Both the position numbers and the translations under genes were made by a program. This document shows, in pieces, positions 8,189-23,039 of a stretch of DNA of 64,000 nucleotides. The notes under the pieces were generated by a model, which was not told where the DNA came from, made no database searches, and saw only the letters and a program-made list of their open reading frames with translations. Within the stretch, counting starts at the first letter, position 1; the number at the start of each line of letters is the position of its first letter. Origin of the DNA: Streptomyces mobaraensis (GTDB lineage Bacteria; Actinomycetota; Actinomycetes; Streptomycetales; Streptomycetaceae). The stretch covers positions 4,712,001 through 4,776,000 of the forward strand of contig NZ_CP083590.1 in assembly GCF_020099395.1 (NCBI RefSeq), in the 5' to 3' direction.

Positions 8189-10560
8189 CGGGGATGGGCG
8201 GCAGCGCCGGAGCGGGCGGCTCGGGAGGGCCGGACGACGTGACGGGCGTGCTCGGCGCCCTGGTCACCTCCTCCGTGACCGCGCCCGCGCCGGTCCCCGA
8301 CGGACCCCCGCAGGGCATCGGCGTGTCCGTCCCGGCCGCCGACGCCGCGGCCAAGACGCAGGGCACCTTCCCGTACGCCGCCGACCTGTGGGCGGAGGGC
8401 CTGCTGTGGGCGGCGGTGCTGCGGTCCCCGCACCCGCACGCCCGGATCGTCTCCATCGACACCGCGACGGCCGCCGCCATGCCGGGCGTGCACGCCGTCG
8501 TCACCCACGCCGACGTGCCGGGCGACGCCGCGCACGGGCGGCGGGTCGCGGACCGCCCGGTGTTCGCGTCGGACGTGGTGCGCCACCACGGCGAGCCGAT
8601 CGCCGCGGTCGCCGCCGATCACCCGGACACCGCGCGGCTCGCCGCCGCCGCCATCGCCGTCGAGTACGAGGTGCTGGAGCCGGTCACCGACCCCGAACTG
8701 GCCTTCTCCGCCGAGCCGCTGCACCCGGACGGCAACCTCATCCGCCACATCCCGCTGCGCTTCGGCGACCCCGAGATCACCGGCGAGGTGGTGGTCGAGG
8801 GGCTGTACCGGATCGGCCGGCAGGACCCGGCGCCCATCGGCGCGGAGGCCGGCCTCGCCGTGCCACGGCCGGACGGCGGCGTCGAGATCTACTGCGCCTC
8901 CACCGACCCGCACGCCGACCGCGACCTGGCCGCCGCCTGCTTCGCCCTCGAACCGGAACGCGTCAAGATCGTCGTCACCGGCGTGCCCGGCGCGATGGGC
9001 GACCGCGAGGACTCCGGCGTCCAGCTGCCGCTCGGCCTGCTCGCGCTGCGCACCGGCCACCCGGTGAAGCTCGCGGCGACCCGCGAGGAGTCGTTCCTCA
9101 GCCACGCCCACCGCCACCCGACGCTGCTGCGCTACCGCCACCACGCGGACGCGGAGGGCAAGCTGGTCAAGGTCGAGGCGCAGATCCTGATGGACGCCGG
9201 CGCCTACGCCGACTCCTCCGGCGACGCGCTCGCCGCCGCCGTCGCCTTCGCCTGCGGCCCGTACGTCGTCCCGCACGCCTTCGTCGAGGGCTGGGCCGTC
9301 CGCACCAACAACCCGCCGTCCGGGCATGTGCGCGGCGAGGGCGCGATGCAGGTCTGCGCCGCCTACGAGGGCCAGATGGACAAGCTGGCGGCGCGGCTCG
9401 GCATCGACCCCGCCGAGCTGCGCATGCGCAACATCATGGCGACGGGCGACATCCTGCCCACCGGCCAGACGGTCACCTGCCCGGCCCCCGTCGCCGAACT
9501 CCTCGCCGCCGTCCGAGACTTCCCCCTCCCCGCCCTGCCCAAGGACGATCCGGAGGAGGAGTGGCTGCTCCCCGGCGGCCTGGAGGGCGCCGGCGAACCG
9601 GGCGCCGTCCGGCGCGGCGTCGGCTACGGCGTCGGCATGGTCCACATGCTCGGCGCGGAGGGCGCGGACGAGGTGTCCACGGCGACGGTGAAGGTCAGCG
9701 GTTCCGTCGCGACCGTCATCTGCGCCGCCGTCGAGACCGGCCAGGGCTTCTCCACCCTCGCCCGGCAGATCGTCCAGGAGGTCCTGGGCATCACGGACGT
9801 GTACGTGGCCCCCGTCGACACCGACCAGCCGCCGTGCGGCCCGGCCGCCCACGGCCGCCACACCTGGGTCTCGGGCGGCGCGGTCGAGCGGGCCGCGCGC
9901 ATGGTGCGCACCCAGCTCCTCCAGCCGCTGGCCGCCCAGTTCGGCATGTCCACCGAGCTGCTGACGATCGCCGACGGCAAGATCACCTCGTACGACGGCG
10001 TGCTCAGCACCACCGTCGCCGAGGCCCTCGACGGCAAGGAGCTCTGGGCCACCGCCCAGTGCCGCCCCCACCCCACCGAGCCGCTGGACGAGACCGGCCA
10101 GGGCGACGCCTTCGTCGGCATCGCCTTCTGCGCGGTACGGGCCGTGGTGGACGTCGACGTCGAACTCGGCTCCGTCCGCGTCGTCGAGATGGCCGTCGCC
10201 CAGGACGTCGGCCGCGTCCTCAACCCCGCCCAGGCACACGCCCGCATCGAGGCCGGCGTCACCCAGGGCCTCGGCGCGGCCCTCACCGAGAACCTCCGCA
10301 CCTCGGCAGGCCAGGTCCGCCGCCCGGACTTCAGCGGCTACGCCCTGCCGACGTCCCTGGACGCCCCGGACATCCGCATCGTCAAGCTCGTCGAGGAACG
10401 CGACGTGGTCGCCCCCTTCGGCGCCAAGGCCATCAGCGCCGCCCCGGTCGTCACCTCCCCCGCCGCCATCGCCTCGGCCGTCCGCGCCGCCACCGGCCGC
10501 CCGGTCAACCGCCTCCCGATCCGGCCGCAGGCGGCGGTGGCGGTACCGACGGGGGCGTGA
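8185..10560 (+). CDS. Molybdo-hydroxylase molybdopterin-binding subunit, active-site variant
   Basis: A 791-residue large subunit of the xanthine dehydrogenase/aldehyde oxidase family, which would hold the Mo-pterin cofactor. The N-terminal domain is recognisable (WAEGLLWAAVLRSPHPHARI), as are GQGFSTLARQIVQEVLG and the C-terminal PAAIASAVRAATGRPVNRLP. Two family hallmarks are changed. The Gly-rich FGGK-type motif reads GAMGDRED (about residues 269-276). The GExP motif carrying the catalytic Glu reads KAISAAP, with Ala at about residue 752 where Glu is expected. ATG 8185 overlaps the previous stop (ATGA). It may be a diverged or non-catalytic paralogue; its substrate is unknown. Confidence 0.88.
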   Translation: MTGMGGSAGAGGSGGPDDVTGVLGALVTSSVTAPAPVPDGPPQGIGVSVPAADAAAKTQGTFPYAADLWAEGLLWAAVLRSPHPHARIVSIDTATAAAMPGVHAVVTHADVPGDAAHGRRVADRPVFASDVVRHHGEPIAAVAADHPDTARLAAAAIAVEYEVLEPVTDPELAFSAEPLHPDGNLIRHIPLRFGDPEITGEVVVEGLYRIGRQDPAPIGAEAGLAVPRPDGGVEIYCASTDPHADRDLAAACFALEPERVKIVVTGVPGAMGDREDSGVQLPLGLLALRTGHPVKLAATREESFLSHAHRHPTLLRYRHHADAEGKLVKVEAQILMDAGAYADSSGDALAAAVAFACGPYVVPHAFVEGWAVRTNNPPSGHVRGEGAMQVCAAYEGQMDKLAARLGIDPAELRMRNIMATGDILPTGQTVTCPAPVAELLAAVRDFPLPALPKDDPEEEWLLPGGLEGAGEPGAVRRGVGYGVGMVHMLGAEGADEVSTATVKVSGSVATVICAAVETGQGFSTLARQIVQEVLGITDVYVAPVDTDQPPCGPAAHGRHTWVSGGAVERAARMVRTQLLQPLAAQFGMSTELLTIADGKITSYDGVLSTTVAEALDGKELWATAQCRPHPTEPLDETGQGDAFVGIAFCAVRAVVDVDVELGSVRVVEMAVAQDVGRVLNPAQAHARIEAGVTQGLGAALTENLRTSAGQVRRPDFSGYALPTSLDAPDIRIVKLVEERDVVAPFGAKAISAAPVVTSPAAIASAVRAATGRPVNRLPIRPQAAVAVPTGA

Positions 10561-10596: not shown

Positions 10597-11001
10597 TCAC
10601 CGCCGCCGCTTTCGGACTTCCTTCCAGCGGCGGTACCGGCGTTCGTTCTTCTCGCTGTTGAGCAGCTCCTTCAGCCGTGGCGACAACTCGGGCAGCACGG
10701 CGCCCTGTTCTTGGGCGTCCAGCAGCCCCCGGACGTACGCGCGCGCCTGCTCCTCCAGCGGCCCCAGGCGATTCGACCGCCGGACCGCGAGCACCCACAG
10801 CCAGATCACGAGGGGCACGAGCAGCAGCGCCGCGTAGGCGGCGGGCACCCCTTCTGTGGACGCGTCCAGCGCTCCCAGGGCGGCGACAATGGCAAGCAGG
10901 CACCCTCCCTCGTCGTACCACTCGCCCTTGCCCGCGATCCGTTCGTAGTGAGCGACGGCTTCCGGCTTCGGCGGGATGAGATCGTCAAACGGCTCGGGCA
11001 T
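10597..11001 (-). CDS. Small two-helix membrane protein A (134 aa)
   Basis: Unrecognised 134-residue protein. The N-terminus is MPEPFDDLIPP, then the motif HYERIAGKGEWYDEGGC, then two hydrophobic segments (LLAIVAALGALDA, about residues 35-48, and AAYAALLLVPLVIWLWVLAV, about 54-73), then a charged C-terminal half ending KEVRKRRR. It is a clear paralogue of the next gene upstream (11055-11453), sharing YERIAGKGxWYDExGC and the membrane pair. It is last in a leftward cluster that starts at the WXG-like gene at 14191. Two tandem copies of a small membrane protein beside a putative secreted effector would suit immunity proteins, but that is inference. Confidence 0.7.
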   Translation of the reverse strand: MPEPFDDLIPPKPEAVAHYERIAGKGEWYDEGGCLLAIVAALGALDASTEGVPAAYAALLLVPLVIWLWVLAVRRSNRLGPLEEQARAYVRGLLDAQEQGAVLPELSPRLKELLNSEKNERRYRRWKEVRKRRR

Positions 11002-11054
11002 GACTGCCTTTCGGCCACCGATGGTGGGCGGGGCGCGAGCGGGTGGTGCCGGTG

Positions 11055-11453
11055 TCAGCGCTGCTTCTTGCGGGTCTTTCTCGCAAGGTGTTCACGAACC
11101 TCTTTCTCTGCCCGATACATCTGCTGCAAAGCGGGGGACGGCTGCGGGATCCTTGCGCCTCTCTCCTCGGCGTCCACCAGGCGCCGCACGTAGTCGCGGG
11201 TCTCGCCGTACAAGGGCCGCAGACGAAAGGCGCGCCGGATGGCGAGGGCCCACAGCCACATGACGGCAGGGACGAGCAGGAGGGCCGCATAACCTGCCCG
11301 GAAGTCGCTGCTGAAGCCGACCAGGGCTCCTACGAGGGGGAAAATGGCGAGAGTACAACCTGCTTCGTCGTACCATCCGCCCTTGCCGGCGATCCGCTCA
11401 TAGTCAACGACGGTTTTTGATTTACGCGGGGCCTGGTCGAATTGCTCTGGCAT
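11055..11453 (-). CDS. Small two-helix membrane protein B, paralogue of A
   Basis: 132 residues, starting MPEQFDQAPRK. It has the shared block VVDYERIAGKGGWYDEAGC, two hydrophobic stretches (LAIFPLVGALVGF and YAALLLVPAVMWLWALAI) and a basic tail ending ARKTRKKQR. ATG 11453 is chosen over GTG 11459 because GAGAGG lies 5 nt before the ATG and it aligns with the paralogue's MPEPF. The start is 9 nt after the stop of the 369-residue gene, so translation is likely coupled. Function unknown. Confidence 0.7.
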   Translation of the reverse strand: MPEQFDQAPRKSKTVVDYERIAGKGGWYDEAGCTLAIFPLVGALVGFSSDFRAGYAALLLVPAVMWLWALAIRRAFRLRPLYGETRDYVRRLVDAEERGARIPQPSPALQQMYRAEKEVREHLARKTRKKQR

Positions 11454-11462
11454 GGGCACCTC

Positions 11463-12572
11463 TCAAGCCTTCTTGACCGACCGACGGTAACCCGCGGGCG
11501 CCCCCGCCGGTCTCCGGCAAGGGCCGAGCACCTTGACGAGAAGTCGCTGATCGGCAGGGAATGGGGTCAGGCCAAGGCGGTAGCCCGCAGCGTGCACCGC
11601 TGAGAAAGAAGGGTCTGCCGTCGTCAATGAGGGAGTCCGGTTCCATCCGTGAGCCAGTAGAGCGGTCTCGGCGCGCCGCATTGCCTCGGTGGGGCTGTCG
11701 GAGATTGTCGCACTGCGCACGGACCACTCGTGCAGGAGAGAACATGGAGCAGCGTTCCCTACCGCTCGGCAGTCGGGGCAGACAACCTGGCTCAATCGGT
11801 TCTCAGGGCTGACCGATCCATGCATCGCCAAGGCGTCCAAAACATTGCTGGAATGCTCGTATATCTCTTGTGTGGAAGCGGTGGGACTACCCCCGCCAGG
11901 GCGGAACGCCTGGGACGGTGTCGTGAGGAATAGTAGGTCGTCCTCGCTTGACCAGTTCATGGTTTGAACAACACTGGCGAACAGTTCGGAATAGAAATCC
12001 CAGTCGTCCATGGCCGGAGTCGTGAGTTCCAGTACTATCACCTCTGAGCCCTCGGGTGAGGGGGTGTAGACCTGGATCACTCCCTTGACCATTTCGACCG
12101 GGAAGCCGGTGCCCGAAAACTCCGAAGGGACCAGGAACGGTTCATCTCCTATGCGTACGACGACTCTGCCGCAGGGGAGGTCGGTGCACCGTATGTCATC
12201 CTGCGGATAGGCTTCCCTGAGGGCGGACGCCGTCTGACCGAGGAGATCTGTGGCCGTGTAGCCCTCAAGCGAGAGTCGGTACATCGCCAAGGAAGCGGTG
12301 CTCTGCCTCTCTCCGTCCATATCGAGTGCGCAGAAGGCCGCGTACTCGGCTCCTGCCTCAATGAAGTCCTCAAGAAGGCACCCGTAGGCCACGCACAACC
12401 GGAGTCTCTCCTCATCGGTGCCGGATGGCAGAAGTCTCTCGGCCATGTAGTAGAGCCGGTCGGCTGCTTCTTCGGCATCCACGGAGTCCAGCGGAAGAGG
12501 GTGGAAGAAGGCGGGGGGAAGCCAGGTAATGTAGAGGTCGCTGCGAGCAGTGGTGTCTGCGGAGGTTTTCAT
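11463..12572 (-). CDS. Hypothetical protein, 369 aa, in WXG cluster
   Basis: No family recognised. The predicted protein is soluble and acidic: an N-terminal helical region (EEAADRLYYMAERLLPSGTDEERLRL), a central beta-rich part (VEMVKGVIQVYTPSPEGSEVIVLELTTPAMDDW, residues about 175-210) and a C-terminal part with two CxxC-like Cys in VCPDCRAVGNAAPCS. Several segments recall ESX-associated cytoplasmic proteins that handle secreted partners, but only in general character. It starts 8 nt after the stop of the 421-residue effector-like gene and sits 9 nt before the small membrane protein, so it is mid-operon. A chaperone or immunity role is inferred only from position. Confidence 0.65.
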   Translation of the reverse strand: MKTSADTTARSDLYITWLPPAFFHPLPLDSVDAEEAADRLYYMAERLLPSGTDEERLRLCVAYGCLLEDFIEAGAEYAAFCALDMDGERQSTASLAMYRLSLEGYTATDLLGQTASALREAYPQDDIRCTDLPCGRVVVRIGDEPFLVPSEFSGTGFPVEMVKGVIQVYTPSPEGSEVIVLELTTPAMDDWDFYSELFASVVQTMNWSSEDDLLFLTTPSQAFRPGGGSPTASTQEIYEHSSNVLDALAMHGSVSPENRLSQVVCPDCRAVGNAAPCSLLHEWSVRSATISDSPTEAMRRAETALLAHGWNRTPSLTTADPSFSAVHAAGYRLGLTPFPADQRLLVKVLGPCRRPAGAPAGYRRSVKKA

Positions 12573-12580
12573 CTGCTTAA

Positions 12581-13846
12581 TCAGCTGGCCAGGGCCTGAT
12601 GGAATGCGGTGGGCGTACCTCTTCTGCCGGTGTAAGGAGCAGGTGCTTGGGTTAGGGGTTCTCTTTCGTGGTGGCTGGAACTTTCACCATGGGTGATCAA
12701 TTTCTCCAGGCCGTGTACGGTGGTCAGGGCCTTTATCGGGCCGGTGACCATTTCAGGGGAGATCCGGGCTTCCCCGGGCTTCCCGATTATTTGTTTCCCG
12801 GACTTTCCGCTGAATCGATTCACGACATTGCTGATCCCCTTCGTGCTGATGGGGTTAGTAAAACCTTCCAGGAACCCTGTTCGTGCCTCCTTCGCTCCGT
12901 TCAGCAACTTGCCGCCCTTGGCGCCTGCTTTTATTCCTTGAACGAGTCCCTTGCCTGCACCGAAGGAGGGAAAGAGTCCCAAGCTGTCCATTCCCATTTT
13001 GGTGAAAGCTGTCTTTTTGTCGATGAGTCCGCGCTGCCAGGCCATGTAATGCCCTGCCGCTGCCGCGCTTGCGCAGGCGACGGACAAGCCGCCCAGGACG
13101 GCGCCTGCGGGTGGGAACACGCTGGCCACGATGGCCGCCAAGGCCAATGCGCTTGACAGCGTGGAAAACAGATCCGCGTGCTTGACGAGGAAGTTCTTGA
13201 ACCCCTTCCACGCCTTGTTGAGGCCGCCCGATATCCGCTCCCACACACTGATGTCCGGCGGGTGGTTCTTGGCGGCCTCGCGTATCGCCTTGGCCGCTTC
13301 TTCCGAGTGCCGTTCCCACTTCTCCCGCAGGCGCTCGGCCTCGGCGATGATCAGGTCGAGTGCGTGCACGGCTTTGGCGGCGTCTGAGGCTGCCTTGCTG
13401 CTGTCGCTGGTCAGCTTGTCGGCCTCGGCCTTGGAGATCTGCACATGATTGTGGTTGATGTCATCGATCTTCTGATTGATGAGTTTGCTGGCCTCGACCG
13501 TCTCTTTGACTTTTGACCTCGCGGCTACCGCGTCGCTTTCGAGTCTCTTCGCTGTCTCCTGGTGGGCGTGGAGGTTCTCACGCCACTGCTTCAGCGCACG
13601 GGAGCAGTCATGCATGGACTTGCTGCCCTGTTGCAAATAGGTGGGCAGTTTGCCGAGTTGGCCTCTGAAGGCCGTGGCCGCCTCCCCCTTCCAGACTTTG
13701 TCCGACTTGCCGATTTGTTCTACCAGGCCATGGAGCTCTTCGAGTTCGTCTGCGACTCGGCCGACGTCGTGTGCGAGCCACTCGGTTGTCTTTACGCTGC
13801 CTTTTGCGGGATTGAACCCAAGGCCAGGCCATGCTGAGTCGGACAT
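12581..13846 (-). CDS. Putative type VII secreted protein with WXG100-like N-terminus
   Basis: 421 residues. Residues about 15-110 form a helical hairpin with the WxG turn (VWKGEAATAF, near residue 52). A long coiled-coil-like stretch rich in Ala/Glu/Lys runs to about 200. Two hydrophobic segments follow (LSSALALAAIVASVFPPAGAVLGG and VACASAAAAGHYMAW, about 230-275). The C-terminal 140 residues are Gly/Lys-rich without a recognised toxin domain. This architecture fits streptomycete T7SS-secreted proteins whose C-terminus varies. Codon use is visibly less GC-rich than in the flanking operons. It is second in the leftward operon. Confidence 0.75.
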   Translation of the reverse strand: MSDSAWPGLGFNPAKGSVKTTEWLAHDVGRVADELEELHGLVEQIGKSDKVWKGEAATAFRGQLGKLPTYLQQGSKSMHDCSRALKQWRENLHAHQETAKRLESDAVAARSKVKETVEASKLINQKIDDINHNHVQISKAEADKLTSDSSKAASDAAKAVHALDLIIAEAERLREKWERHSEEAAKAIREAAKNHPPDISVWERISGGLNKAWKGFKNFLVKHADLFSTLSSALALAAIVASVFPPAGAVLGGLSVACASAAAAGHYMAWQRGLIDKKTAFTKMGMDSLGLFPSFGAGKGLVQGIKAGAKGGKLLNGAKEARTGFLEGFTNPISTKGISNVVNRFSGKSGKQIIGKPGEARISPEMVTGPIKALTTVHGLEKLITHGESSSHHEREPLTQAPAPYTGRRGTPTAFHQALAS

Positions 13847-13897
13847 GTTTCTCCCACGGGTGAGTCCGGTGGTCGTATTCGGGGCGCTGTCGGCGGC

Positions 13898-14191
13898 TTA
13901 CCGTTCGCGGGCGCTGAACCCCTGGCGTAGGACGTGTTCGTATTCCGTGAACTCCTTCGAGACCTCCTTCAGAGCGCTGTGGATGTGCTTGGACCCCTTG
14001 GCTATGCGCTTGATGCCGTCGTGCCAGTTGTCCTGGAAGTGGTAGCAAGCTGCGTCGAGGCCCTGAGTGCCCAGGCCTTTCGGCCCGACCTTTTTCAACG
14101 AGGCGCAGGCGTCGTGCATCCGTTCCGTCACCTCGTTCAGCCTTCGCAGCAAGTCCGCCATGCCGTCATCAGCGTGGCCGAAATCAGACAT
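13898..14191 (-). CDS. WXG100/ESAT-6-like small protein
   Basis: A 97-residue all-helical protein of WXG100 size (MSDFGHADDGMADLLRR...). Two long helices flank a central turn, CYHFQDNWHDGIKRI, where W-x-x-G stands in for WxG. ATG 14191 is chosen over TTG 14194; AAGGAGGG lies just upstream. It heads the leftward operon and precedes the larger WXG-bearing gene by 51 bp, the common pairing of a small partner with a larger T7SS substrate. Confidence 0.72.
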   Translation of the reverse strand: MSDFGHADDGMADLLRRLNEVTERMHDACASLKKVGPKGLGTQGLDAACYHFQDNWHDGIKRIAKGSKHIHSALKEVSKEFTEYEHVLRQGFSARER

Positions 14192-14556
14192 CAACCCTCC
14201 TTGATTTGTTGGCCTCTTGGGCGCGGATGGAGGTGCGTCTTGTGCACCAGGGCGCGCCTCGGTGACTGTAAGTCAAGTCTCATGGCTGAGCAAGATTTTG
14301 ACAGAGACTGTCATGTCGGTGAGTGTGGGGGGTGTTGTGCCGGGCGTTCACCTCGCCCGGCGCGGCGGTCGTGGCCATGGGCGGTGGTCGCTGACGGTGA
14401 GGCTGGGCATGAGCCTGGTCGTTTGCTTCTACATTCAACTGCTCAGGGAGGGTGAGGAGTTGGGATCGTTCGTGGTGTGCGCGCACCTACCTGTCGGTAG
14501 TCTTGCACGGCTTGATGTAGGGACCATGGAGTGGGTGGACGAGGGATGGGGCGGAA
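14192..14556. promoter_or_regulatory. Divergent promoter region of the WXG island
   Basis: 365 bp between the two divergently read arms, with no supported ORF. It holds a perfect inverted repeat TGACAG-AGA-CTGTCA at 14299-14313, whose left end overlaps a TTGACA -35-like hexamer (14298-14303), and a short GC hairpin (GCCGGGCG...CGCCCGGC, about 14339-14360). These could control both arms at once. Confidence 0.45.
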
Positions 14557-14994
14557 GTGGGGGCACAGTCCGCGAGCGACAGGCTGAAGGTGGAGCTCGG
14601 CACGCTCAAGACCTTCAAAGGGCGTATCGACGAAGCGCTAAGCAGGCTGGGTGGTTCGGAAGCGGACCCGTCACACGTGGAGCAAGCGACCTTCGATCAG
14701 GGGCATCTGGGCAAGGGCTTCGACGCGGTAGGGGCGCTGTACGGCGCCTACCGGGCCGTGCATCAGGACCTGGCCGCTCTGTCGAAGCTGCTCGCCGACC
14801 AGATCGAGGCCCTGAGCCTGGCCGTGCAAGGGGCGCACAACGGCTACCAGGAGACGGACCGGGAGCACCAGCGCCGCATATGGGCGGTCCAGCAGGAGGT
14901 CGCGAAGCACTACGACCCGAAGCTGGATCCGCACGGGTCCAAGGGCGGCGATCCGGGTCACACGGGCGGGGACCACGACAAGGGGGGCATGTGA
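14557..14994 (+). CDS. WXG100-like protein, 145 aa
   Basis: Helical protein of about 110 residues plus a disordered Gly/His/Asp tail (SKGGDPGHTGGDHDKGGM). The helices pair in the ESX style (LKTFKGRIDEALSRL and VHQDLAALSKLLADQIEALSLAVQ), but there is no tryptophan turn; the central segment reads FDQGHLGKGFDAV. GTG 14557 is the only plausible start in frame. The stop is 1 nt before the next ATG, so the two are cotranslated. Function is inferred from its neighbour, a larger WXG protein. Confidence 0.7.
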   Translation: MGAQSASDRLKVELGTLKTFKGRIDEALSRLGGSEADPSHVEQATFDQGHLGKGFDAVGALYGAYRAVHQDLAALSKLLADQIEALSLAVQGAHNGYQETDREHQRRIWAVQQEVAKHYDPKLDPHGSKGGDPGHTGGDHDKGGM

Positions 14995-14995
14995 C

Positions 14996-16642
14996 ATGAA
15001 GGGTCAGGAGAACGGTGCGAACCCCGGCTCGGCCAGGCCCACGTTCACGCCGGCCGTGGTTCCCGACTTCGGCACGTACTCCCACGAGCAGCTGCTCGCC
15101 ATGGTCGAGCACGCCGACGAGCACAAGATCAGGGCCATCGGGCTCAGGCTCCAGGAGGCGGCTCAGACGATCGGTGAGGTGGGGCAAGGGCTCAAGGAGC
15201 ACATGGGCCGCCTGGAGTGGGACGGCGAGGGCGCCCGGGCCTTCCAAGCCTGGGGTGCCGACATGTCCAACGCCACCCTGTACTTGAGCGGTTACAGCGA
15301 GAAGGTCGGCATGTGGATCTGTGCCGCCGCCAACGCCCTCAGCGCGGCCCAGAAGATGCCGCCCGTCCCGGCCGACGCCAAGGCGAAGGTGGACAAGTTC
15401 GACCGGCTCAACCCCGGGCTGCGTGCCGACCCCGGCAGGTTCCACGACACGCGGACTCTCTATGCCAAGGACGGCCCCAGCCCCGCGGAGGTGACGACCG
15501 CGCTCACCAAACTCCGCCAGGAGCACGACCACGCGGCCGAGGCGATGACGCGGCTCGCCCAGGCGTACAACGACTCCGGCGACGAGATCACCAAGGGGGT
15601 GCGGCCGAACTTTCCGCCGATGCCGGCGACGATGTTGCCTCCGTCGTTCATCAACGATGCTGAGCACATCAGTCTGGACGGGGCAGGTGGTGGCGGTGGC
15701 GGCGGGGACGGCACCGCTGGCCACGTCGACAAGGGCGGGCCCGCAGCCGGGGACGGTACGACGGGTACTGCCGAGGCCGGTGGGGCTGCCGCAAGTGGCG
15801 GGAGGACCGTTCCGCCGGTGAGCCGTGCGGATTCCTCGACGAGAGTGGACGGAGGCGTGCCCGTTCCTACGGTGCCGGCGACTCCTGACGTACCGGCGAC
15901 TCCCACCGTGCCGGACGGCGGGCAGCCGGTGCCCACCACACCGACCGGCCCGACACCCACGGGACCGGCGTCCCCACCGCACCGGCCCAACAGGTCCGTT
16001 CCCGGCGTTCCAGGCCTGCCCCCCACGTGGCCCGGCCGCGTGCCGTCGGCGCCGAAGCAGGGCGGTGACCCGGGCCCGGCAGGTTCCCGGCGCGGAACGG
16101 TACCGCCGGTGGAGGGAGCTCCGGGCGGTCGCGTGGGCGCGCCGGCCGCCAGGATGCCTGCCGTGGCGCTCCCGCCCACAGGTGGCGAGGCAACTCCAGT
16201 GGCCCCCCGAAAGCCGTTCGACGGTGTGCTGGGTGGTCGCCCCGCCCCTAGGGCATCCGAAGCAGGGCTTCCCGCAGGGCCTCGCGGAACGGTCGTCGGT
16301 GCGGAGTCCGGGGCAGCCGGTGCGGTGGGTCAGGGCCGTCCCAGTATGGGAGTCGGCCCTGGCCCCGGCGGGACACCGGGTGCGGGAGGCGCCGGTCGGG
16401 GCGCGAACCGGACGGGCGGCCGACGTCTCGCCTCCGAAAGTGGGGGAGAGGTCGGTGGCCGGACGGTCCAGGGAGCCGTCTCGGAAGGCCGCCCCTTCAC
16501 CCGGGGCGGATCGGGTCTCGTGCGTGGTCACCGGGACAAGGGACGCGGCCATGACGATGGCGGTAGCGCCAGCCGCCGGTCCGGCCACTTCGTCGAGGAG
16601 GAGCAGGGAGCGGGAGAGGAACGCAGGCCGTTTTCCCTGTGA
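14996..16642 (+). CDS. WXG/PPE-like protein with long Pro/Gly-rich C-terminus
   Basis: 548 residues. The N-terminal about 210 residues are helical, with the WxG turn in RLEWDGEGARAF (near residue 75), and resemble ESX substrates of the PPE/WXG type in size. From about residue 220 the sequence is low-complexity: a Gly7 run, then Pro/Val/Thr repeats (VPATPDVPATPTVPDGG), then Arg/Gly/Pro-rich sequence to the end. No transmembrane segment or catalytic motif is seen. It is cotranslated with the preceding gene and followed after 32 nt by the mycosin, so it may be the protease's substrate or a scaffold. Confidence 0.78.
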   Translation: MKGQENGANPGSARPTFTPAVVPDFGTYSHEQLLAMVEHADEHKIRAIGLRLQEAAQTIGEVGQGLKEHMGRLEWDGEGARAFQAWGADMSNATLYLSGYSEKVGMWICAAANALSAAQKMPPVPADAKAKVDKFDRLNPGLRADPGRFHDTRTLYAKDGPSPAEVTTALTKLRQEHDHAAEAMTRLAQAYNDSGDEITKGVRPNFPPMPATMLPPSFINDAEHISLDGAGGGGGGGDGTAGHVDKGGPAAGDGTTGTAEAGGAAASGGRTVPPVSRADSSTRVDGGVPVPTVPATPDVPATPTVPDGGQPVPTTPTGPTPTGPASPPHRPNRSVPGVPGLPPTWPGRVPSAPKQGGDPGPAGSRRGTVPPVEGAPGGRVGAPAARMPAVALPPTGGEATPVAPRKPFDGVLGGRPAPRASEAGLPAGPRGTVVGAESGAAGAVGQGRPSMGVGPGPGGTPGAGGAGRGANRTGGRRLASESGGEVGGRTVQGAVSEGRPFTRGGSGLVRGHRDKGRGHDDGGSASRRSGHFVEEEQGAGEERRPFSL

Positions 16643-16674
16643 TCGACTGAACCTGCCGCAGGAAGAGGGCACTT

Positions 16675-17889
16675 GTGAGCATGGCTGATACCGGAAACCG
16701 CAGTCGATGGACGGGCGTGGTGGGGGGTCTCACGGCCTTCACTCTTGTGGTATTCACTGCCGGAACGGCCCGGGCGGACACTGTCAGGGATCTTCAGTGG
16801 TATCTCGACGGCATGCACGCCGAGGAGATGTGGGAAACCAGTAAGGGAGCTGGGGTGACGGTGGCCGTCATCGACACCGGCGTCGACGACAGCCTTCCCG
16901 ACCTACGGGGACAGGTGCTGCCCGGCAAGGATTTTCTGCCCACTGGGGCGGGCGCTCATACGGACACCTTTGGCCACGGCACGGCCATGGCTGTACTCAT
17001 CGCCGGCACGGGCAAGGGATTCGGCGGGACGGGGGCCAAGGGGCTGGCCCCGGATGCCAAAATCCTGCCTTTCCGCGTCATGAGTTCTTCGGACGGCTGG
17101 GCCTCCGAGAACACCGCCTTGGTCAAGGCTGTCCGCTACGCGGCGGATTCACCGGCGAAAGTCATCAACATCTCGCTCGCCGGCATAGCCCGGGACTCCG
17201 AACTGGATGACGCCGTCCGGTACGCGGTCTCCAAGGGAAAACTGATCTTCGCCGGATCGGGCAATGAAGCGCAGCGGGGCAACCCTGTCGTCTACCCGGC
17301 GGCGTCCCCTGGCGTGGTCGCGGTCGGTGCGGTTGACAGGCACGTACGCGTGACGGCGGAGTCATCACGTGGCCCTTACGTGACGTTGGCGGCCCCGGGC
17401 GACGACATGGTCCACAGTTGCCCCGGAAGCACCGGCATCTGTCGCAGCCACGGCACCAGCGACGCCAGCGCCCTGGCCTCCGCCTCCGCCGCCCTCCTCT
17501 GGTCCGCTCACCCGGACTGGACGGCCAACCAGGTCCTCCGTGTCCTCATCAACACCGCTGGCGGCCCGAAGAGCGGCGAGAAGCGGAGCGACACGCTTGG
17601 TTACGGCGTGGTCCGGCCGCGGGTCGCCCTCAAGGATCCTGGCGACCCCGGGCCGGCGGACGTCAATCCGCTGACAGGAGCGCAGGGCGCGTCTCCGACT
17701 ACCTCCTCGCCCCCGCCCGCCCGAGGCGCGGGCGCTTCCATCCGCTCCCATCCCGGGAGGGCAGAGGCGGGTGATGCAGGAGGAGACACCGGGCTGTGGC
17801 TTGGAGTTGGAGTCGGAGCGGCGGTGGTGGTCAGCGCGGCGGTGGCCGCGCTCGGCCTGATCACACGCAGACGGAGGCGACATGCGTAG
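16675..17889 (+). CDS. Subtilisin-like serine protease, mycosin (T7SS-associated)
   Basis: A 404-residue S8 peptidase with signal peptide (TGVVGGLTAFTLVVFTAGTARA) and a C-terminal membrane anchor (LGVGVGAAVVVSAAVAALGLI, then RRRRRHA). This is the topology of type VII mycosins, with an extracellular catalytic domain tethered to the membrane. The catalytic triad is Asp67 (VAVIDTG), His101 (FGHGTA) and Ser262 (HGTSDAS). The residues after the Ser (DASALASASA) differ from the usual SFAAP. GTG 16675 fits GGAAGAGGG 5 nt upstream; ATG 16681 is the alternative. No ecc genes are nearby, so the secretion apparatus must be elsewhere. Confidence 0.88.
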   Translation: MSMADTGNRSRWTGVVGGLTAFTLVVFTAGTARADTVRDLQWYLDGMHAEEMWETSKGAGVTVAVIDTGVDDSLPDLRGQVLPGKDFLPTGAGAHTDTFGHGTAMAVLIAGTGKGFGGTGAKGLAPDAKILPFRVMSSSDGWASENTALVKAVRYAADSPAKVINISLAGIARDSELDDAVRYAVSKGKLIFAGSGNEAQRGNPVVYPAASPGVVAVGAVDRHVRVTAESSRGPYVTLAAPGDDMVHSCPGSTGICRSHGTSDASALASASAALLWSAHPDWTANQVLRVLINTAGGPKSGEKRSDTLGYGVVRPRVALKDPGDPGPADVNPLTGAQGASPTTSSPPPARGAGASIRSHPGRAEAGDAGGDTGLWLGVGVGAAVVVSAAVAALGLITRRRRRHA

Positions 17890-18114
17890 GAACCGCCTCG
17901 TCCTATGCGTGCGCCCCGACAGAACACGTGCTCTCTGACGACAAGCCCATCTGCCCGGTCTTCCTTCTTCGACGGGGATGACACCACTCACCAAGCCGTA
18001 CATGAGTACGTGTACCCATGCGGTACCAGGGCGTTGCGCGATAGCAATAGGGACAGTCGGGGAGTGAGTGATCCCCGACGTCAATGTGAAAAGTCCGTGG
18101 ACAAGGAGGCCTGG

Positions 18115-18441
18115 GTGCCGCCCCAGTCTTTGGGAAAAGATTTCGAAATTCAGCCGGAGGATGTCGCCAAAGCAGGCGAGGCTGCGCATCGCGTGGCCAA
18201 GGCCATGCCAGAGGGTGTCAAGGGATTATACAAACCGTGCGATAGCGCGGCCGCTGGACTGCAGGGCACGCTGACAGGGAAGGCCGTGCACGAGTGTCTG
18301 GAAGCTTGGGCGAAAGCTCTCCGTGCGTTGACGGGGCGTGTGGAAACCGCCGGAGACAAAATCATAGCTTCGGCGAAGGAGTCGAAGGGTGTGGATGAGA
18401 AGCACGCCTTTGACTTCATCAGGCCTTCAGGGGGGCGGTAG
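18115..18441 (+). CDS. WXG100-like small protein, 108 aa
   Basis: Helical protein of ESX size (MPPQSLGKDFEIQPEDVAKAG...) with a Gly turn near the middle (GLQGTLTGKAVHECLEAW). GTG 18115 is chosen because AAGGAGG stands 5 nt upstream; the open frame further 5' lacks coding character. It ends 2 nt before the DUF1023 hydrolase gene, suggesting the two products act or are exported together. Confidence 0.72.
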   Translation: MPPQSLGKDFEIQPEDVAKAGEAAHRVAKAMPEGVKGLYKPCDSAAAGLQGTLTGKAVHECLEAWAKALRALTGRVETAGDKIIASAKESKGVDEKHAFDFIRPSGGR

Positions 18442-18443
18442 AA

Positions 18444-20180
18444 ATGCATCTTTCGGATTTGAAGGCCGCCAAGCCGATGGCCGTGGTCGATGCCGGAAAC
18501 GCATGGGACAAGCTGTCGGGAAAATATGCGGCATACAGCAGAGACTGCAGCCGGTATGTTCACGTGCCATTGGTGGAAAATTGGAGGAGCGGTCTAGGGG
18601 CCGAGTCTGCTGCCTCCTACCTGGGGAAGGTGAGTCAAGACCTGAAGGTGGCGCAGCAGGAACTGGATGCCATAGGTGCTGTGCTGCGCGCGGCGGGCGA
18701 GGCCTTCCTGGCTCACCAAGGGCGATTGAAAAATCTACTTGCGGAGGCCTCGGAAAGCGGATTTACCGTTCATTCCAACGGCTCGCTGTCTGCCCCCGAT
18801 ATCTCTGCCAAAGGTCTCCCTCCGGCTGCTGCAGGTGCCGCGCAAAAGGCGCAGGCTGAACGCATGAAGAATATCGCTGACGGGATCGCTCAAGTAATGC
18901 GCGATGCGGATCACGCGGACAAAGAGTATGCGGATGCGATAAAAAAATTTGTGGACACCGCTCACCGATGTGCCGGTGGGAACTGGCAGACCGGCCTGTT
19001 CGATCTCGACACCGCAAAAAACATCGATCAGAATTTGCTGACCGAAATAGGGATGCCGGATAAGAAGGCCACTCCCGAGGCTGTGAACGCATGGTGGAAG
19101 GGATTGCCTCCGGAGCTCAGGAGGAGTCTCCTGGATGATCACCCCTACATTCTGGGGAATCGAGACGGCATCCCTGCGGAGGATCGGGACGAAGGTAACA
19201 GGGCGTACCTGCCCATACTCCTGAGGGAGCTCGAGCGTAAGTATGATGCCGCCTCCGGGGATGCAAGAAGTGATCTTAAAGACAAGATCGAGGGCCTTGA
19301 AGGGCTCCGAGACAAGTTGTCGAGTAATGGCAGTAGTGGACTGAGGCCTTACCTATTGGGAATCGACGACGAAGGGAATGGAAGGGCGATTGTCTCGTAT
19401 GGCAATCCCGATACCGCGAAGAACGTGTCGGCCTATGTTCCCGGCCTGAACACGAAGCTCAGTGGCCACTTCGCCGACTCTGACGTCCAGCGCGCCGACG
19501 ATGTAGCCCGAATGGCGGGCCGTGTGGATCCGAAAAGTTCAACGGCTTCCATCGTCTGGCTTGGCTATGATGCCCCTCAATTGAAACCTGGTTCACAGAT
19601 GCTCGATGTTACTTGGGAGGATCGAGCCAAGGCGGGCGCGGCCTCCTACAATGGATTCCTCCAAGGAATCCATGCCACTCATGAAGGCGGTGCCCCCCAT
19701 GTCACGGCGCTCGGTCACTCCTACGGTTCACTTGCTGTTGGAAAAGCCAGTCAGCAAGGTGAGGGCTTGCCAGCTGACGATGTCATCCTTGTGGGGAGCC
19801 CAGGAACGGGGGTGGACCGGGCCTCCGATCTGGGCGTAGGAGCTGATCATGTCTACGTGGGAGCTGCGGAGAACGATCAGGTGACGAATTTCCCCCCCTC
19901 GTTCGAACAGGCGGACCATTGGTTCGATTACATCGCCCCGGGAAGCGAGTTCGGCACCAAACACGCGGCATTCGGTGTGGATCCGGCCAGTAAAAACTTC
20001 GGAGGGCATCGATTTTCTGTCGCCGCCGGAGAGGATACAGGGCTTTCCGGCTTGCTGACGGGCGATCTGCCGGCTCACTCCGTCTATTTCAAAGAGAACG
20101 AGGGTGGTGACTCCCTGCGCAATATCGCGCTGGTGGTCACCGGCCATGGTGATCACATCAGCGTGGCGGCACCCCGATGA
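18444..20180 (+). CDS. DUF1023 alpha/beta hydrolase with ESX-like N-terminal domain
   Basis: 578 residues. Residues 1 to about 110 form a helical hairpin with a W-x-x-G turn (NWRSGLGAESAASYL), a WXG-like export module. A linker follows, then an alpha/beta hydrolase of the DUF1023 family (about residues 310-560): nucleophile elbow GHSYG (Ser426), then VGSPGTGVDRASDLG. It is likely a T7SS-exported lipase or esterase; the substrate is unknown. Codons are less GC-biased than in flanking housekeeping genes. The stop overlaps the lipoprotein start (ATGA). Confidence 0.82.
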   Translation: MHLSDLKAAKPMAVVDAGNAWDKLSGKYAAYSRDCSRYVHVPLVENWRSGLGAESAASYLGKVSQDLKVAQQELDAIGAVLRAAGEAFLAHQGRLKNLLAEASESGFTVHSNGSLSAPDISAKGLPPAAAGAAQKAQAERMKNIADGIAQVMRDADHADKEYADAIKKFVDTAHRCAGGNWQTGLFDLDTAKNIDQNLLTEIGMPDKKATPEAVNAWWKGLPPELRRSLLDDHPYILGNRDGIPAEDRDEGNRAYLPILLRELERKYDAASGDARSDLKDKIEGLEGLRDKLSSNGSSGLRPYLLGIDDEGNGRAIVSYGNPDTAKNVSAYVPGLNTKLSGHFADSDVQRADDVARMAGRVDPKSSTASIVWLGYDAPQLKPGSQMLDVTWEDRAKAGAASYNGFLQGIHATHEGGAPHVTALGHSYGSLAVGKASQQGEGLPADDVILVGSPGTGVDRASDLGVGADHVYVGAAENDQVTNFPPSFEQADHWFDYIAPGSEFGTKHAAFGVDPASKNFGGHRFSVAAGEDTGLSGLLTGDLPAHSVYFKENEGGDSLRNIALVVTGHGDHISVAAPR

Positions 20181-20794
20181 AGCGTTCGGGGGCTCTGTGG
20201 CAGGCGGCCGGTGCATTGGCGGTGTCAGTCGCCTTGGTCTCCTGTGGGGTGGACGGCTCCTCCGGTCAGGAGCGGGAGAAGAAAGTGGCGCGGGCAGAGA
20301 TGAACATGCAGCAAGCAGGTGAGCGTTCGGAGGCGATTTTGGACAAGACCTTCCAGGCAATCAAGCCTCCGGTGAAGTGGGGCTATGACGCTCCTTCGGA
20401 AATCGCCTGTAGCACAGGAATAAACCGTCCGGCAGGCACGACGCAGGTCCGGCGTGGCAGAGTGGTGACCACAGTGATTTCCGAGCGTCGGCGAGGTGGC
20501 TTCCTCGGAGTTGTACAGCGGTCGTGGGAGAAGCTGGGGTACGAGATCACGAGTGTCAATGCGGACAAGAAAATGCCCGGCATCACCGCCCGGACCCCGG
20601 ACGGGTTTGCGGTGTCCGTGGGGGTGGGGACGATCGGGAACGTATTTTTCAGTGTCAGCTCGCCGTGTGCTGAACCATCGCCCGTCACTTACCCCAAGGG
20701 CACCCCAGGCAAGCCGGGACGCCCCGACACCCACGTCGACCTGATTCCTCGGCACCACTCCGACTTCTGGTCGTCCAGCGAACCCTTGGGTTAG
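20177..20794 (+). CDS. Putative lipoprotein coupled to DUF1023 hydrolase
   Basis: 205 residues with a signal peptide and lipobox (ALVSCGVDG, Cys about 23), so it is probably anchored outside the membrane. The mature part has no recognised domain; it contains a short basic stretch (SERRRGGF) and a Pro-rich C-terminus. ATG 20177 overlaps the hydrolase stop by 4 bp, so it is last in the rightward operon. Such a protein could receive or restrain the exported hydrolase, but nothing in the sequence proves it. Confidence 0.72.
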   Translation: MKRSGALWQAAGALAVSVALVSCGVDGSSGQEREKKVARAEMNMQQAGERSEAILDKTFQAIKPPVKWGYDAPSEIACSTGINRPAGTTQVRRGRVVTTVISERRRGGFLGVVQRSWEKLGYEITSVNADKKMPGITARTPDGFAVSVGVGTIGNVFFSVSSPCAEPSPVTYPKGTPGKPGRPDTHVDLIPRHHSDFWSSSEPLG

Positions 20795-20906: not shown

Positions 20907-23039
20907 TCACACCACCGGCATCGCCGTCAGTGATCCGTCCGCGGACAGGAACACGCGGTTGCCCGAGCCGGCCAGCCAGGGGGAGACGCTGCCGCGCCAG
21001 GGGTAGGACCAGAGGGGTTCGCCCGTCTGTTTGTCGAGGGTCAGGGCGGCGGAGGCGGTGCCGCCGGTGGGGGTCCAGAGGGTTCGGGCCTGGACGGCGG
21101 GGGGTGTGAGGGGTGGGTAGGCGCGGTCGTCCAGGCGGTGGGTCCAGATGGTTCTGCCGGTGCGGCGGTCGAGGCAGTGGACGGTCGGGGTGTCCACGGC
21201 ATAGAGGAAGGAGCCGTCGACGGCCGGGCCCGACCAGCCCTGGTACGAGCTGGTGCCGCCGCTCATGGTGGGGCTGGTCCGGAAGGAGGCGGAGGGGAGG
21301 GACCAGAGCTTTCCGCCGTCGTCCAGGCGGTGGGCGGCCAGGGTCTTGCCGCCGAGGTACACGATGCCGTCGCGGACCGCCGGCATCACCGCGTCCTGGG
21401 CGTCGGGTCGTTGGGTGAGTTTCCACGCGGTGCGGCCGGTGGCGGTGTCGAGGGCGTGGACGTCGCCGTTCTTGCCGTAGACGACGAGGCGGTTCCGGGC
21501 GGGGACCGCCAGCGCGGTCTCGGAGTGGGTCGGCTCCCGGTCCGGGTGGGGGACGGCCCAGCGGACCGTGCGGGTGCGGATGTCGAGGGCGCTGATCCTG
21601 TTGGGGCGCATGGCCGCCGCGCCGTCGACGAAGTACACCGTCTCGTCGTCCATCGCGAGGACGTGGTCGGCGTCGACGGACGCGCTCCAGCGCTCGGCGC
21701 CCGTGGCGGCGTCCAGGCCGACGAGCCGGCCGTCGGCGAACGGGGTCGCGACGATGCCGGCGCGGCCCGCGAAGCGGCCGTACTGCTCGCTCTTCACCCG
21801 CCACTTGGGTGTGCCGTCGCGTACGGAGAAGGCGGCCAGGCCGTCGCTCGTCATGGTAAGGACCAGGTCGCGCACGGGCAGCGGGGCGGGGGCGAAGGGG
21901 AACGTGCCGACCGGGCCCCAGAGTTCCGCGGGCGGGCGGCCCTCCTCGTACCGGCCGGCCGTCAGCGGCTTGGCGTCCCAGGGGTGAGGCGGGGGCGGCG
22001 GGTCGGCCTTGAGGGTCTCCCCGTCCGAGGTGCCGCCGCGGAGGAACCACCACGCCCCGGTGCCGCCCGCCGCGGCCACCGTGGCGCCGCCCGCCACGAG
22101 GGCGGTGACGAGGCGGCGGCGGGAGGGGCCGGACGCGGTGGCGGGGGCGTCGGTGAGGGTGGTCAGTTCGCGGGCGGCGGTCTCGCGGCGGGTGATGTCG
22201 GCGGCGAGGGGGCCGCGGCGCCAGACGCGGTCGGCGCCCTTGGGCGGGGCCATCGCGGTGGCGATCAGCGCGGGCCGCGGGCGGTGCTCGGGTTCACGGG
22301 CCAGGCAGGGCGCGATCAGGGCGTGCAGCGGGGCGGGGAGGCCCGCCAGGTCCGGTTCCTCGTGGACGACCTTGTACTGGACGGACGCCACGTCCGTACC
22401 GTCGTAGGCGCGGCGGCCGGTGGCCGCGAAGGCGAGTACGGCGCCGAGCGAGAACACGTCACCGGGCGGGCCGACGCGCCGGCCGAGCACCTGCTCGGGG
22501 GCGCCGTAGCCGGGGGTGACCGGGTTGGTGCCGGTGGTGGTGAGGGTGAGGCCGTGCTCGGGGCGGGCGATGCCGAAGTCGATGACGCGCGGGCCCGAGG
22601 AGGTCAGGACGATGTTGGACGGCTTGATGTCGCGGTGCACCAGGCCGGCGGCGTGGACGTCCGCGAGGGTCCGCGCCAGCGCGGCGCCCAGGGCCCTGAC
22701 CCCCGCCTCGTCGAACGGCCCGCGCTCCTCGACCGCCTCGGTCAGCGTCGGCCCGGCCAGGAACTCGGTGGCGATCCACGGCCGTCCGCCCTCCGTCCAC
22801 GCCCCCAGCACCCGCGCGACCCCCGGGCTCGTCACCGCCCGCGCGGCCTGCGCCTCGCGGACGAAGCGCTGCGCCATGTGCGGGTCGTGGGCCATCTCCG
22901 GGTGCAGCACCTTGACGGCGGCCGCGGCCCCGTCGGCGTCCCGGCCGAGGTACACCTTGCCCATGCCGCCCGCGCCGAGCACGCCGACGAGACGGTAGGG
23001 GCCGAGGCGGAGGGGGTCACCGGTGGTGAGGGGGTGCAT
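20907..23039 (-). CDS. Membrane Ser/Thr protein kinase with PQQ-like beta-propeller sensor
   Basis: 710 residues. The kinase domain (about 10-270) has the G-loop GVLGAGGMGKVYLG, the VKVL lysine strand, HRDIKPSNI and DFGIARPEHG. A juxtamembrane linker and one transmembrane helix (VTALVAGGATVAAAGGTGAWWFL, about 350-372) follow. The outside part carries PQQ-type WD-like repeats (for example TGAERW, TGRTAW, TGRTIW, TGEPLW), a likely ligand-binding propeller. ATG 23039 starts MHPLTTGDPLRLGPYRL, the usual N-terminus for this family. It is convergent with the type VII island and probably not part of it. Confidence 0.9.
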   Translation of the reverse strand: MHPLTTGDPLRLGPYRLVGVLGAGGMGKVYLGRDADGAAAAVKVLHPEMAHDPHMAQRFVREAQAARAVTSPGVARVLGAWTEGGRPWIATEFLAGPTLTEAVEERGPFDEAGVRALGAALARTLADVHAAGLVHRDIKPSNIVLTSSGPRVIDFGIARPEHGLTLTTTGTNPVTPGYGAPEQVLGRRVGPPGDVFSLGAVLAFAATGRRAYDGTDVASVQYKVVHEEPDLAGLPAPLHALIAPCLAREPEHRPRPALIATAMAPPKGADRVWRRGPLAADITRRETAARELTTLTDAPATASGPSRRRLVTALVAGGATVAAAGGTGAWWFLRGGTSDGETLKADPPPPPHPWDAKPLTAGRYEEGRPPAELWGPVGTFPFAPAPLPVRDLVLTMTSDGLAAFSVRDGTPKWRVKSEQYGRFAGRAGIVATPFADGRLVGLDAATGAERWSASVDADHVLAMDDETVYFVDGAAAMRPNRISALDIRTRTVRWAVPHPDREPTHSETALAVPARNRLVVYGKNGDVHALDTATGRTAWKLTQRPDAQDAVMPAVRDGIVYLGGKTLAAHRLDDGGKLWSLPSASFRTSPTMSGGTSSYQGWSGPAVDGSFLYAVDTPTVHCLDRRTGRTIWTHRLDDRAYPPLTPPAVQARTLWTPTGGTASAALTLDKQTGEPLWSYPWRGSVSPWLAGSGNRVFLSADGSLTAMPVV

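What the first reader, a model, noticed from the sequence alone, without database searches (positions are those of the whole stretch)
10597..20794. Orphan type VII secretion-like island without ecc core genes
Ten kilobases of WXG100-like proteins, a Pro/Gly-rich WXG protein, a mycosin, an exported-type hydrolase and a lipoprotein are arranged as two divergent operons. No EccB, EccC, EccD or EccE gene is present. Codon use in the middle of the island is less GC-rich than in neighbours. It reads as a substrate-plus-processing module that must use a secretion machine elsewhere.
Basis: partly seen in the sequence, partly recalled or inferred. Interest (0 to 1): 0.75.

Follow-up and report, generated by a model that had tools for sequence, protein, structure and literature searches.

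The report
Modular satellite type VII effector locus
A Streptomyces-type chromosome carries, far from its type VII protein-secretion machine, three separable gene sets that look like a substrate-and-protease set plus two toxin-like effectors each with its own guard genes, a layout better known from toxin weapons of other Gram-positive bacteria.

Summary
Window 10597-20794 carries an eleven-gene type VII-like locus with a mycosin over its curated cut-off; no Ecc relative was found in the 64 kb. The ESX core lies 2.7 Mb away. The locus is three modules. B (g6-g7-g8: WXG-like, Pro-rich, mycosin) is an old paralogue of three consecutive core genes and sits beside the same Mo-hydroxylase gene in 13 of 20 fetched loci. 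A (g5-g4-g3-g2/g1) has homologues within a few kb of EccC in 10 of 12 other genomes. C (g9-g10-g11: partner, hydrolase, lipoprotein) recurs as an operon: 39 of 39 fetched hydrolase loci have a lipoprotein downstream. In 246 genomes, close C- and B-type genes occur only with canonical EccC (104/225 versus 0/21; 77/225 versus 0/21; thresholds chosen afterwards). Relatives show deletions with remnants. Best reading: ESX substrate modules exported in trans; A and C are probable effector-immunity sets, like EsxX/ExiAB/ExiCD and TslA/TilA. Most novel is g3: its N-terminal domain, predicted with the fold of LpqN, the type VI immunity protein Tsi3 and chaperone SciW, accompanies g4-like effectors in 25 of 25 loci and none of 53 control loci. 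Secretion and toxicity are inferred.

The parts
10597..11001 (-). g1, 134 aa, small membrane protein; candidate membrane immunity protein of module A
   Evidence: one predicted TM at the threshold used; 52% identical to g2; homologue beside g3/g4 in 14 of 18 named loci; larger forms with 3-4 TM in the four core-linked loci looked at
11055..11459 (-). g2, 134 aa, 2-TM paralogue of g1
   Evidence: G051 keeps one copy, 79% to g2
11463..12572 (-). g3, 369 aa, no TM found; N-terminal domain with a predicted LpqN/PsbP/Mog1-like fold, C-terminal domain related to lipoproteins found beside hydrolases; candidate chaperone/guard of g4
   Evidence: AlphaFold pLDDT 80.4, pTM 0.62; Foldseek MTC28, LpqN, Tsi3, PsbP, Mog1, SciW; hhalign of C-terminal domain 97.4% against ten decoys at most 0.4%; N-domain in 25 of 25 g4-like loci and 0 of 53 control loci
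12581..13846 (-). g4, 421 aa, WXG/LXG-like helical rod plus hydrophobic segment (peak at 233) and glycine-rich stretch at 296; candidate membrane-active effector
   Evidence: PF21725 over cut-off; helices in 18-193, then mostly low confidence; hydrophobic peak in 20 of 20 family members; five-glycine GxxxG chain, shuffle p 0.0015, same place in only 4 of 18 homologues
13898..14194 (-). g5, 98 aa, WXG100-like partner of g4
   Evidence: weak WXG100 match, E 0.1; homologue beside g4 in 18 of 18 named loci
14195..14556 (.). divergent intergenic region between modules A and B
   Evidence: 14493-14554, directly upstream of g6, is kept (77% over 62 bp) in G051, which lacks g6-g11
14557..14994 (+). 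g6, 145 aa, WXG-like protein with a YxxxD motif (YQETD)
   Evidence: 37% to the core-locus paralogue over 16-137; motif read, its meaning recalled; no Pfam match to WXG100
14996..16642 (+). g7, 548 aa, WXG-like N-terminus and Pro/Gly-rich tail
   Evidence: weak T7SS_signal (E 0.047) and WXG100 (E 0.088) matches; 26% to the core paralogue over 27-213; match near g8 in 19 of 20 loci
16675..17889 (+). g8, 404 aa, mycosin (S8 protease) with N-terminal signal/TM and C-terminal TM
   Evidence: TIGR03921 308.2 bits; hydrophobic segments 14-32 and 378-396; groups with 27 other non-core mycosins, sister pair holds the genome's own second core mycosin
18097..18441 (+). g9, WXG-like partner of g10; start at GTG 18097 inferred, the longest frame begins at 17905
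   Evidence: homologues in three loci align only from residue 78-80 of the long frame; small ORF directly upstream in 39 of 39 g10 loci, two of them doubtful frames; no family match
18444..20180 (+). g10, 578 aa, helical N-terminus plus PF06259 alpha/beta hydrolase; candidate enzymatic effector
   Evidence: PF06259 E 4.4e-40, WXG100 only E 0.091; GHSYG, with S426, D478 and H545 kept in at least 95% of 40 sequences
20177..20794 (+). g11, 205 aa, lipoprotein (lipobox LVSC); candidate extracellular immunity protein
   Evidence: invariant Cys23 in 31 aligned homologues; lipoprotein directly downstream of 39 of 39 hydrolases; three tandem copies in L081
20907..23258 (-). g12, Ser/Thr kinase with PQQ/BamB propeller, right flank; a 56% paralogue lies beside EccE in the core locus; membership in the system doubtful
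   Evidence: found near module B in only 3 of 20 loci

Best explanation
The locus is a satellite of the chromosomal ESX (T7SSa) system: three modules whose products are exported in trans by the Ecc machine 2.7 Mb away. Module B is an old duplicate of the core's WXG-like / Pro-rich / second-mycosin block and most likely supplies an EspB-like secreted pair and its membrane-anchored protease. Module A is an effector set: g5 pairs with the rod of g4 to form the export signal, g3 holds the hydrophobic or glycine-rich part of g4 in the cytosol, and g1/g2 protect the membrane. Module C is an effector set: g9 pairs with the helical N-terminus of g10, the hydrolase acts outside the cell, probably on lipids or envelope esters, and lipoprotein g11 guards the producer's own surface. 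Shown here: genes, paralogy, linkage, co-occurrence with EccC, deletions with remnants, predicted folds. Inferred: secretion, partner binding, toxicity, immunity, substrate.
For: Core present far away. B paralogous to three consecutive core genes; mycosin tree. A homologues within a few kb of EccC in 10 of 12 loci. Close C- and B-type genes only with canonical EccC: 104/225 versus 0/21 (Fisher 7e-6) and 77/225 versus 0/21 (3e-4) (lists typed by hand). C is a partner-hydrolase-lipoprotein operon, lipoprotein in 39 of 39 loci, of another sequence type in the five most distant hydrolase loci, tandem lipoproteins in L081, and a fusion of both lipoprotein types in L113. The g3 N-domain accompanies g4-like genes in 25 of 25 loci against 0 of 53 control loci; the g3 C-domain occurs in 8 of 53 control loci, six of them lipoproteins beside hydrolases. 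Published parallels: EsxX/ExiAB/ExiCD and TslA/TilA, passages read.
Against: WXG100 scores of all WXG-like proteins here are below the curated cut-off or absent. The glycine chain of g4 (four or more) is at the same place in 4 of 18 homologues, elsewhere in 8 and missing in 6, and the g4 model is poor after about residue 193. Module C has no Ecc match in any of 39 fetched loci, so its ESX link rests on co-occurrence and WXG-like partners. Co-occurrence was not corrected for phylogeny and thresholds were chosen after seeing the tables: at E 1e-10, 243 of 246 genomes have some g10 match, including 18 of the 21 without canonical EccC (best 1.5e-21), and those 21 mostly have weaker EccC-like matches (17 at E 1e-100 or better). 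The module A test is uninformative (14/225 versus 0/21, p 0.62). Published Streptomyces work ties ESX to development, not antagonism (PMC8401907, passages).
Confidence: 0.6

Rival explanations
1. Developmental role: the modules supply extra ESX substrates and a processing protease for growth, sporulation or envelope remodelling of the producer, with no toxicity; g11 and g3 are activity modulators or chaperones.
For: Streptomyces ESX is reported to act in sporulation and development (PMC8401907, passages). Module B recurs at one chromosomal site (13 of 20 fetched loci), more like a housekeeping set than a weapon.
Against: A and C are patchy, C occurs on plasmids, and both B+C and C alone were lost by deletion; partner lipoproteins change type with the hydrolase.
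Confidence: 0.22
2. WXG-like proteins and hydrolase are not ESX substrates; only the mycosin and the lipoprotein are exported, by Sec, and the rest acts inside the cell.
For: Sub-threshold WXG scores; no Ecc match near module C in 39 loci.
Against: Absence of close B/C-type genes from 21 genomes lacking canonical EccC; A homologues inside ESX core loci; a lipoprotein paired with every fetched hydrolase.
Confidence: 0.1
3. A decaying remnant of a former second ESX cluster that lost its ecc genes.
For: B is a core-like block without ecc genes; deletions occur in relatives.
Against: All frames are open with conserved hydrolase residues; the B arrangement without ecc matches recurs in 20 of 20 fetched loci and its mycosins group together.
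Confidence: 0.05

Closest known systems
Streptomyces core ESX (T7SSa) locus
   Same: WXG-like / Pro-rich / mycosin block g6-g7-g8; a kinase-PQQ neighbour; module A homologues in that locus in other species
   Different: no EccB/C/D/E or EsxA/B at this site; extra hydrolase-lipoprotein operon
EsxX-LapX-ExiAB-ExiCD of Staphylococcus aureus (T7SSb); TelE-TipE of Streptococcus gallolyticus
   Same: helical rod effector with hydrophobic/glycine-rich C-terminus, small helical partner, soluble guard, membrane protein genes
   Different: guard has a LpqN/Mog1-type predicted fold plus a second domain, not the GyrI-like DUF5085 fold; T7SSa host; toxicity untested; glycine zipper not conserved
TslA-TlaA-TilA of S. 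aureus
   Same: hydrolase effector candidate with small helical partner and a lipoprotein gene
   Different: helical part first and hydrolase last (TslA is reversed); hydrolase family PF06259; one partner; sequence relation to TilA not tested
Eag chaperone SciW and immunity protein Tsi3 of type VI secretion
   Same: predicted fold of the g3 N-terminal domain
   Different: Foldseek E 0.0016-0.037, TM 0.34-0.51 by target length; no DUF1795 match; two-domain protein in a type VII setting
ESX-1 EspB-MycP1 pair of mycobacteria (largely recalled; EspB described in passages)
   Same: WXG-type protein with long tail beside a mycosin
   Different: no sequence match tested; cleavage unknown

Membership tests
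T7SSa (ESX) secretion system | EccB, EccC, EccD, EccE membrane machine encoded at the locus | tested here: not met
   no relative in the 64 kb window; machine at C1:2.0 Mb
T7SS mycosin (TIGR03921) | score over curated cut-off; S8 domain; N-terminal signal and C-terminal TM | tested here: met
   308.2 versus 278.75 bits; PF00082 E 1.4e-43; hydrophobic ends
WXG100 family (PF06013) | score over gathering cut-off | tested here: not met
   g4 22.6 bits, g5, g7 and g10 13.3-13.5, g6 and g9 no match, cut-off 27.3; in the g4 family 19 of 20 members match at E<=0.01
Putative T7SS substrate, g4 (PF21725) | T7SS_signal domain over cut-off | tested here: met
   30 versus 27 bits; 20 of 20 family members match at E<=0.01
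T7SS-secreted substrate | EccC-dependent export | not testable with these tools
   only co-occurrence with EccC was tested
TslA-type lipase effector | reverse domain order, lipase first | tested here: not met
   hydrolase at 308-486 of 578 aa, weak WXG100 match at 43-90
TslA-type lipase effector | linked lipoprotein immunity gene | tested here: inconclusive
   lipoprotein adjacent in 39 of 39 loci; neutralisation not testable
EsxX/TelE glycine-zipper effector | conserved C-terminal glycine zipper | tested here: inconclusive
   chain of five in the window protein, p 0.0015; same place in 4 of 18, elsewhere in 8, none in 6
EsxX/TelE glycine-zipper effector | LXG domain | tested here: inconclusive
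   PF04740 E 0.0071, 16.7 bits below cut-off 26.5; rod-like helices predicted
Eag (DUF1795) chaperone | Mog1/PsbP-like fold binding an effector TM region | tested here: inconclusive
   SciW among Foldseek matches, prob 0.95-0.99, E 0.016-0.037; no DUF1795 match among 18 members; binding untested
Integrated mobile island | integrase or attachment-site repeats | not tested
   no search for an integrase was made; module C homologues occur on plasmids

The most novel reading that the evidence does not exclude
g3 founds a class of effector guards in actinobacterial type VII secretion: a two-domain cytosolic protein whose LpqN/Mog1-fold domain cradles the membrane segment of a WXG/LXG-like effector as Eag proteins do in type VI secretion, and whose second domain is the same module that, in surface lipoproteins, accompanies PF06259 hydrolase effectors. 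Types VI and VII would then share a chaperone/immunity fold, and Streptomyces ESX would be an antibacterial weapon fed by satellite effector cassettes.
Probability: 0.3. Interest if true: 0.78.

Novelty: new variant of a known kind. Interest (0 to 1): 0.56.

Why it matters
The substrates and purpose of Streptomyces ESX are largely open; the published work I saw points to development. Cassettes with effector-immunity layout that track EccC, occur on plasmids and are lost by deletion would make antagonism by T7SSa directly testable in laboratory Streptomyces. The g3 fold gives a concrete idea of how membrane-inserting substrates could be kept soluble before export.

Tried and rejected
Single recent island: rejected. 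G051 has A alone between the same two flanking genes and keeps sequence from directly upstream of g6; Streptomyces sp. I05A-00742 has A and B and an 88-bp remnant of the g11 end. Both speak for deletion from a fuller state.

EspG-like chaperone or DUF5085/GyrI-like guard for g3: neither is among the 50 listed of 1557 Foldseek matches. No Pfam family over cut-off for g3, no PDB sequence match of note for g3 or g11.

g11 related to g3 or to the type-2 lipoproteins: an apparent link (82%) vanished when signal peptides were removed (1.8%), and direct comparison gave 0.4-0.8%. The link of type-2 lipoproteins to the g3 C-terminal domain survived. L113 carries both domain types in one lipoprotein.

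Conserved operator palindromes in the divergent promoter: not conserved. Fold match for g4: only coiled-coil BAR-type rods, best E 0.01, uninformative. First scan of genome contigs, with g10 alone, found nothing. Kinase as a fixed part of module B: matches in only 3 of 20 loci. All non-core mycosins as one clade: not so; 28 of 35 group together, 7 fall elsewhere.
Full report
Setting. The window is 4712001-4776000 of contig 1 of a 7.67 Mb two-contig genome; all 18 named loci found with g3 are Streptomyces. I number them g1-g11; flanks are gm1 (7657-10560, molybdopterin-binding hydroxylase subunit) and g12 (20907-23258, kinase with PQQ propeller). No Ecc or EsxA/B relative was found in the window.

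The machine. The genome has one match over the EccC cut-off, 2.7 Mb away. That core holds EccC and EccB over cut-off and two mycosins, one over and one slightly under its cut-off, EsxA and EsxB by WXG100 match, and EccD- and EccE-like proteins that I recognised by position, membrane segments and recalled sequence character, not by a family match.

Module B. g6-g7-g8 match three consecutive genes of the core (37%, 26% and 50% identity over parts). From a search of 246 genus genomes with g8 I fetched 20 high-scoring loci, one a genome; they are not strictly the top 20, since G148, G097, G219, G198, G028, G029 and others were passed over and G018 had been fetched before. g6 matches in 20 of 20, g7 in 19, gm1 in 13, any Ecc gene in 0. 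In a tree of 46 mycosin rows (11 labelled core because an Ecc or Esx match lay in the same stretch, 35 not), 28 non-core rows including g8 group together (93/85, an open fork); the sister pair holds the genome's own second core mycosin and one further non-core row; the other six non-core rows fall elsewhere. B thus looks like an old duplicate at a recurrent site, not a recent acquisition.

Module A. In G051 the same two flanks enclose only g5-g4-g3-g2, 77-92% identical. Among the 12 further genomes with g4 matches at 37-51%, 10 carry A within a few kb of EccC, some with another effector-like gene between; the others are G233, at the gm1 site, and G085, no Ecc match in 20 kb. In a separate scan, 13 of 18 named loci have an EccC match in the locus, some being the same genomes. 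Streptomyces sp. I05A-00742 (L159) has gm1-A-B-g12.

Module C. g10 has a PF06259 hydrolase domain with a conserved GHSYG and candidate triad. In 39 fetched loci with a long g10 match a small ORF lies directly upstream in 39 (two, L096 and L139, are doubtful frames) and a g11 homologue directly downstream in 34, all 34 with a lipobox. In the other five, the hydrolases most distant from g10, a different lipoprotein lies there. L081 has three tandem g11 copies. In L113 one 316-aa lipoprotein holds a g11-like part and a part like the other type. The operon also sits on plasmids: 24 plasmid records have a g10 match, 15 over most of its length, and two were inspected, Mycolicibacterium and Streptomyces goshikiensis. 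No Ecc match lies in any of the 39 stretches.

Loss events. G051 retains 62 bp 77% identical to the sequence directly upstream of g6 but no g6-g11. L159 retains 88 bp, 77% identical, matching the end of g11 (20706-20793) and nothing else of C by the same searches. Both suggest deletion from a fuller ancestor.

Co-occurrence. EccC over cut-off: 225 of 246 genomes. g10 at E 1e-30 or better: 104 of 225 against 0 of 21. g8-type at E 2e-98 or better: 77 of 225 against 0 of 21. g4 at E 1e-60 or better: 14 of 225 against 0 of 21, not significant. Tables were read by hand, thresholds were set afterwards, and relatedness was not corrected. At E 1e-10 nearly every genome (243 of 246) has some g10 match, 18 of the 21 included, so the result concerns close relatives of g10 only. 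Of the 21, 17 have a weaker EccC-like match at E 1e-100 or better and 4 none.

g3 and g4. g4 is predicted as a long helical hairpin (18-193) followed by a poorly predicted part; 20 of 20 aligned family members have their strongest hydrophobic segment at 217-251. The five-glycine GxxxG chain at 296 is unlikely by chance in the window protein (p 0.0015), but of 18 homologues only 4 have one at that place, 8 have one elsewhere and 6 none. A g3 profile finds its N-terminal domain in 25 of 25 g4-like loci, including 9 of 9 that gave no sequence to the profile (two of those nearly copies of ones that did), and in 0 of 53 control loci; the C-terminal domain is in 10 of the 25 and 8 of the 53. Six of those eight are lipoproteins beside hydrolases: L102, L106, L111, L112, L113, L154. 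The g3 model (pLDDT 80.4, pTM 0.62) has one Foldseek match below E 0.001, an uncharacterised Jonesia protein; MTC28, LpqN, Tsi3, PsbP, Mog1 and SciW follow at E 0.0015-0.037, with TM-scores of 0.34-0.55 by target length and 0.18-0.29 by query, so the fold call concerns one domain and is moderate. That these names form one fold superfamily is recalled. The g3 C-terminal domain is related to the type-2 lipoproteins (97.4%, ten decoys at most 0.4%); g11 itself is not shown to be (0.8%).

Comparison with print. EsxX has a soluble guard pair, a membrane pair and Lap partners (PMC12744356, passages); TelE has a glycine zipper and TipE (PMC10434224, passages); TslA has the lipoprotein TilA and two partners (PMC10730906, passages). 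A review of T7SS variants has no occurrence of Streptomyces in its text (PMC11217815, word search and passages). A search for DUF1023 with type VII secretion gave no paper; DUF1795, Mog1, and Eag with chaperone, each with type VII secretion, gave 4, 2 and 13 papers, seen as listings for these terms and by title not about such a link. Other listings searched. S. [quoted passage not shown] scabies (PMC8401907, passages). Orphan pieces as such are therefore not new; the modular effector-guard reading and the g3 fold are what these searches did not show in print.

Verdict. Real and recurrent, and a new variant of a known kind: satellite ESX substrate and probable effector cassettes. Export, toxicity and immunity remain to be shown.

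Noticed in passing
L078:16766-18931 (own genome C1:2026765-2028930) and window 20907-23258: A kinase-PQQ protein 56% identical to g12 sits beside EccE in the own ESX core, so both sites carry this kinase.
   Followed up: partly
L007:4765-10908 (own genome C1:4684764-4690907): A 2047-aa frame with FHA and FtsK/SpoIIIE domains, about 32-38 kb before the island and outside the window; could be an unusual secretion-type ATPase.
   Followed up: partly
L113:13391-14341: A 316-aa lipoprotein beside a hydrolase joins a g11-like part and a part like the g3 C-terminal domain.
   Followed up: partly
L089, L147, L148, L155: A second hydrolase copy with a different, longer N-terminus and its own lipoprotein lies in tandem with the standard one.
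   Followed up: no
L157 (Mycolicibacterium sp. TY66 plasmid pTY66_01): A type VII target, alpha/beta hydrolase and lipoprotein operon among toxin-antitoxin genes on a mycobacterial plasmid.
   Followed up: partly
L078:4696-6477 and a partial match at L006:13829: A 593-aa protein between the second mycosin and EccC in the own core, with a second ORF 37% similar to its C-terminal part; looks like another effector place near where module A lies in other species.
   Followed up: no
own genome C1:5859427-5860566: A mycosin-like stretch with one TGA and one TAG inside, a possible pseudogene.
   Followed up: no
window 23788-23861: A tRNA-Cys gene just beyond g12; no integrase search was made.
   Followed up: no
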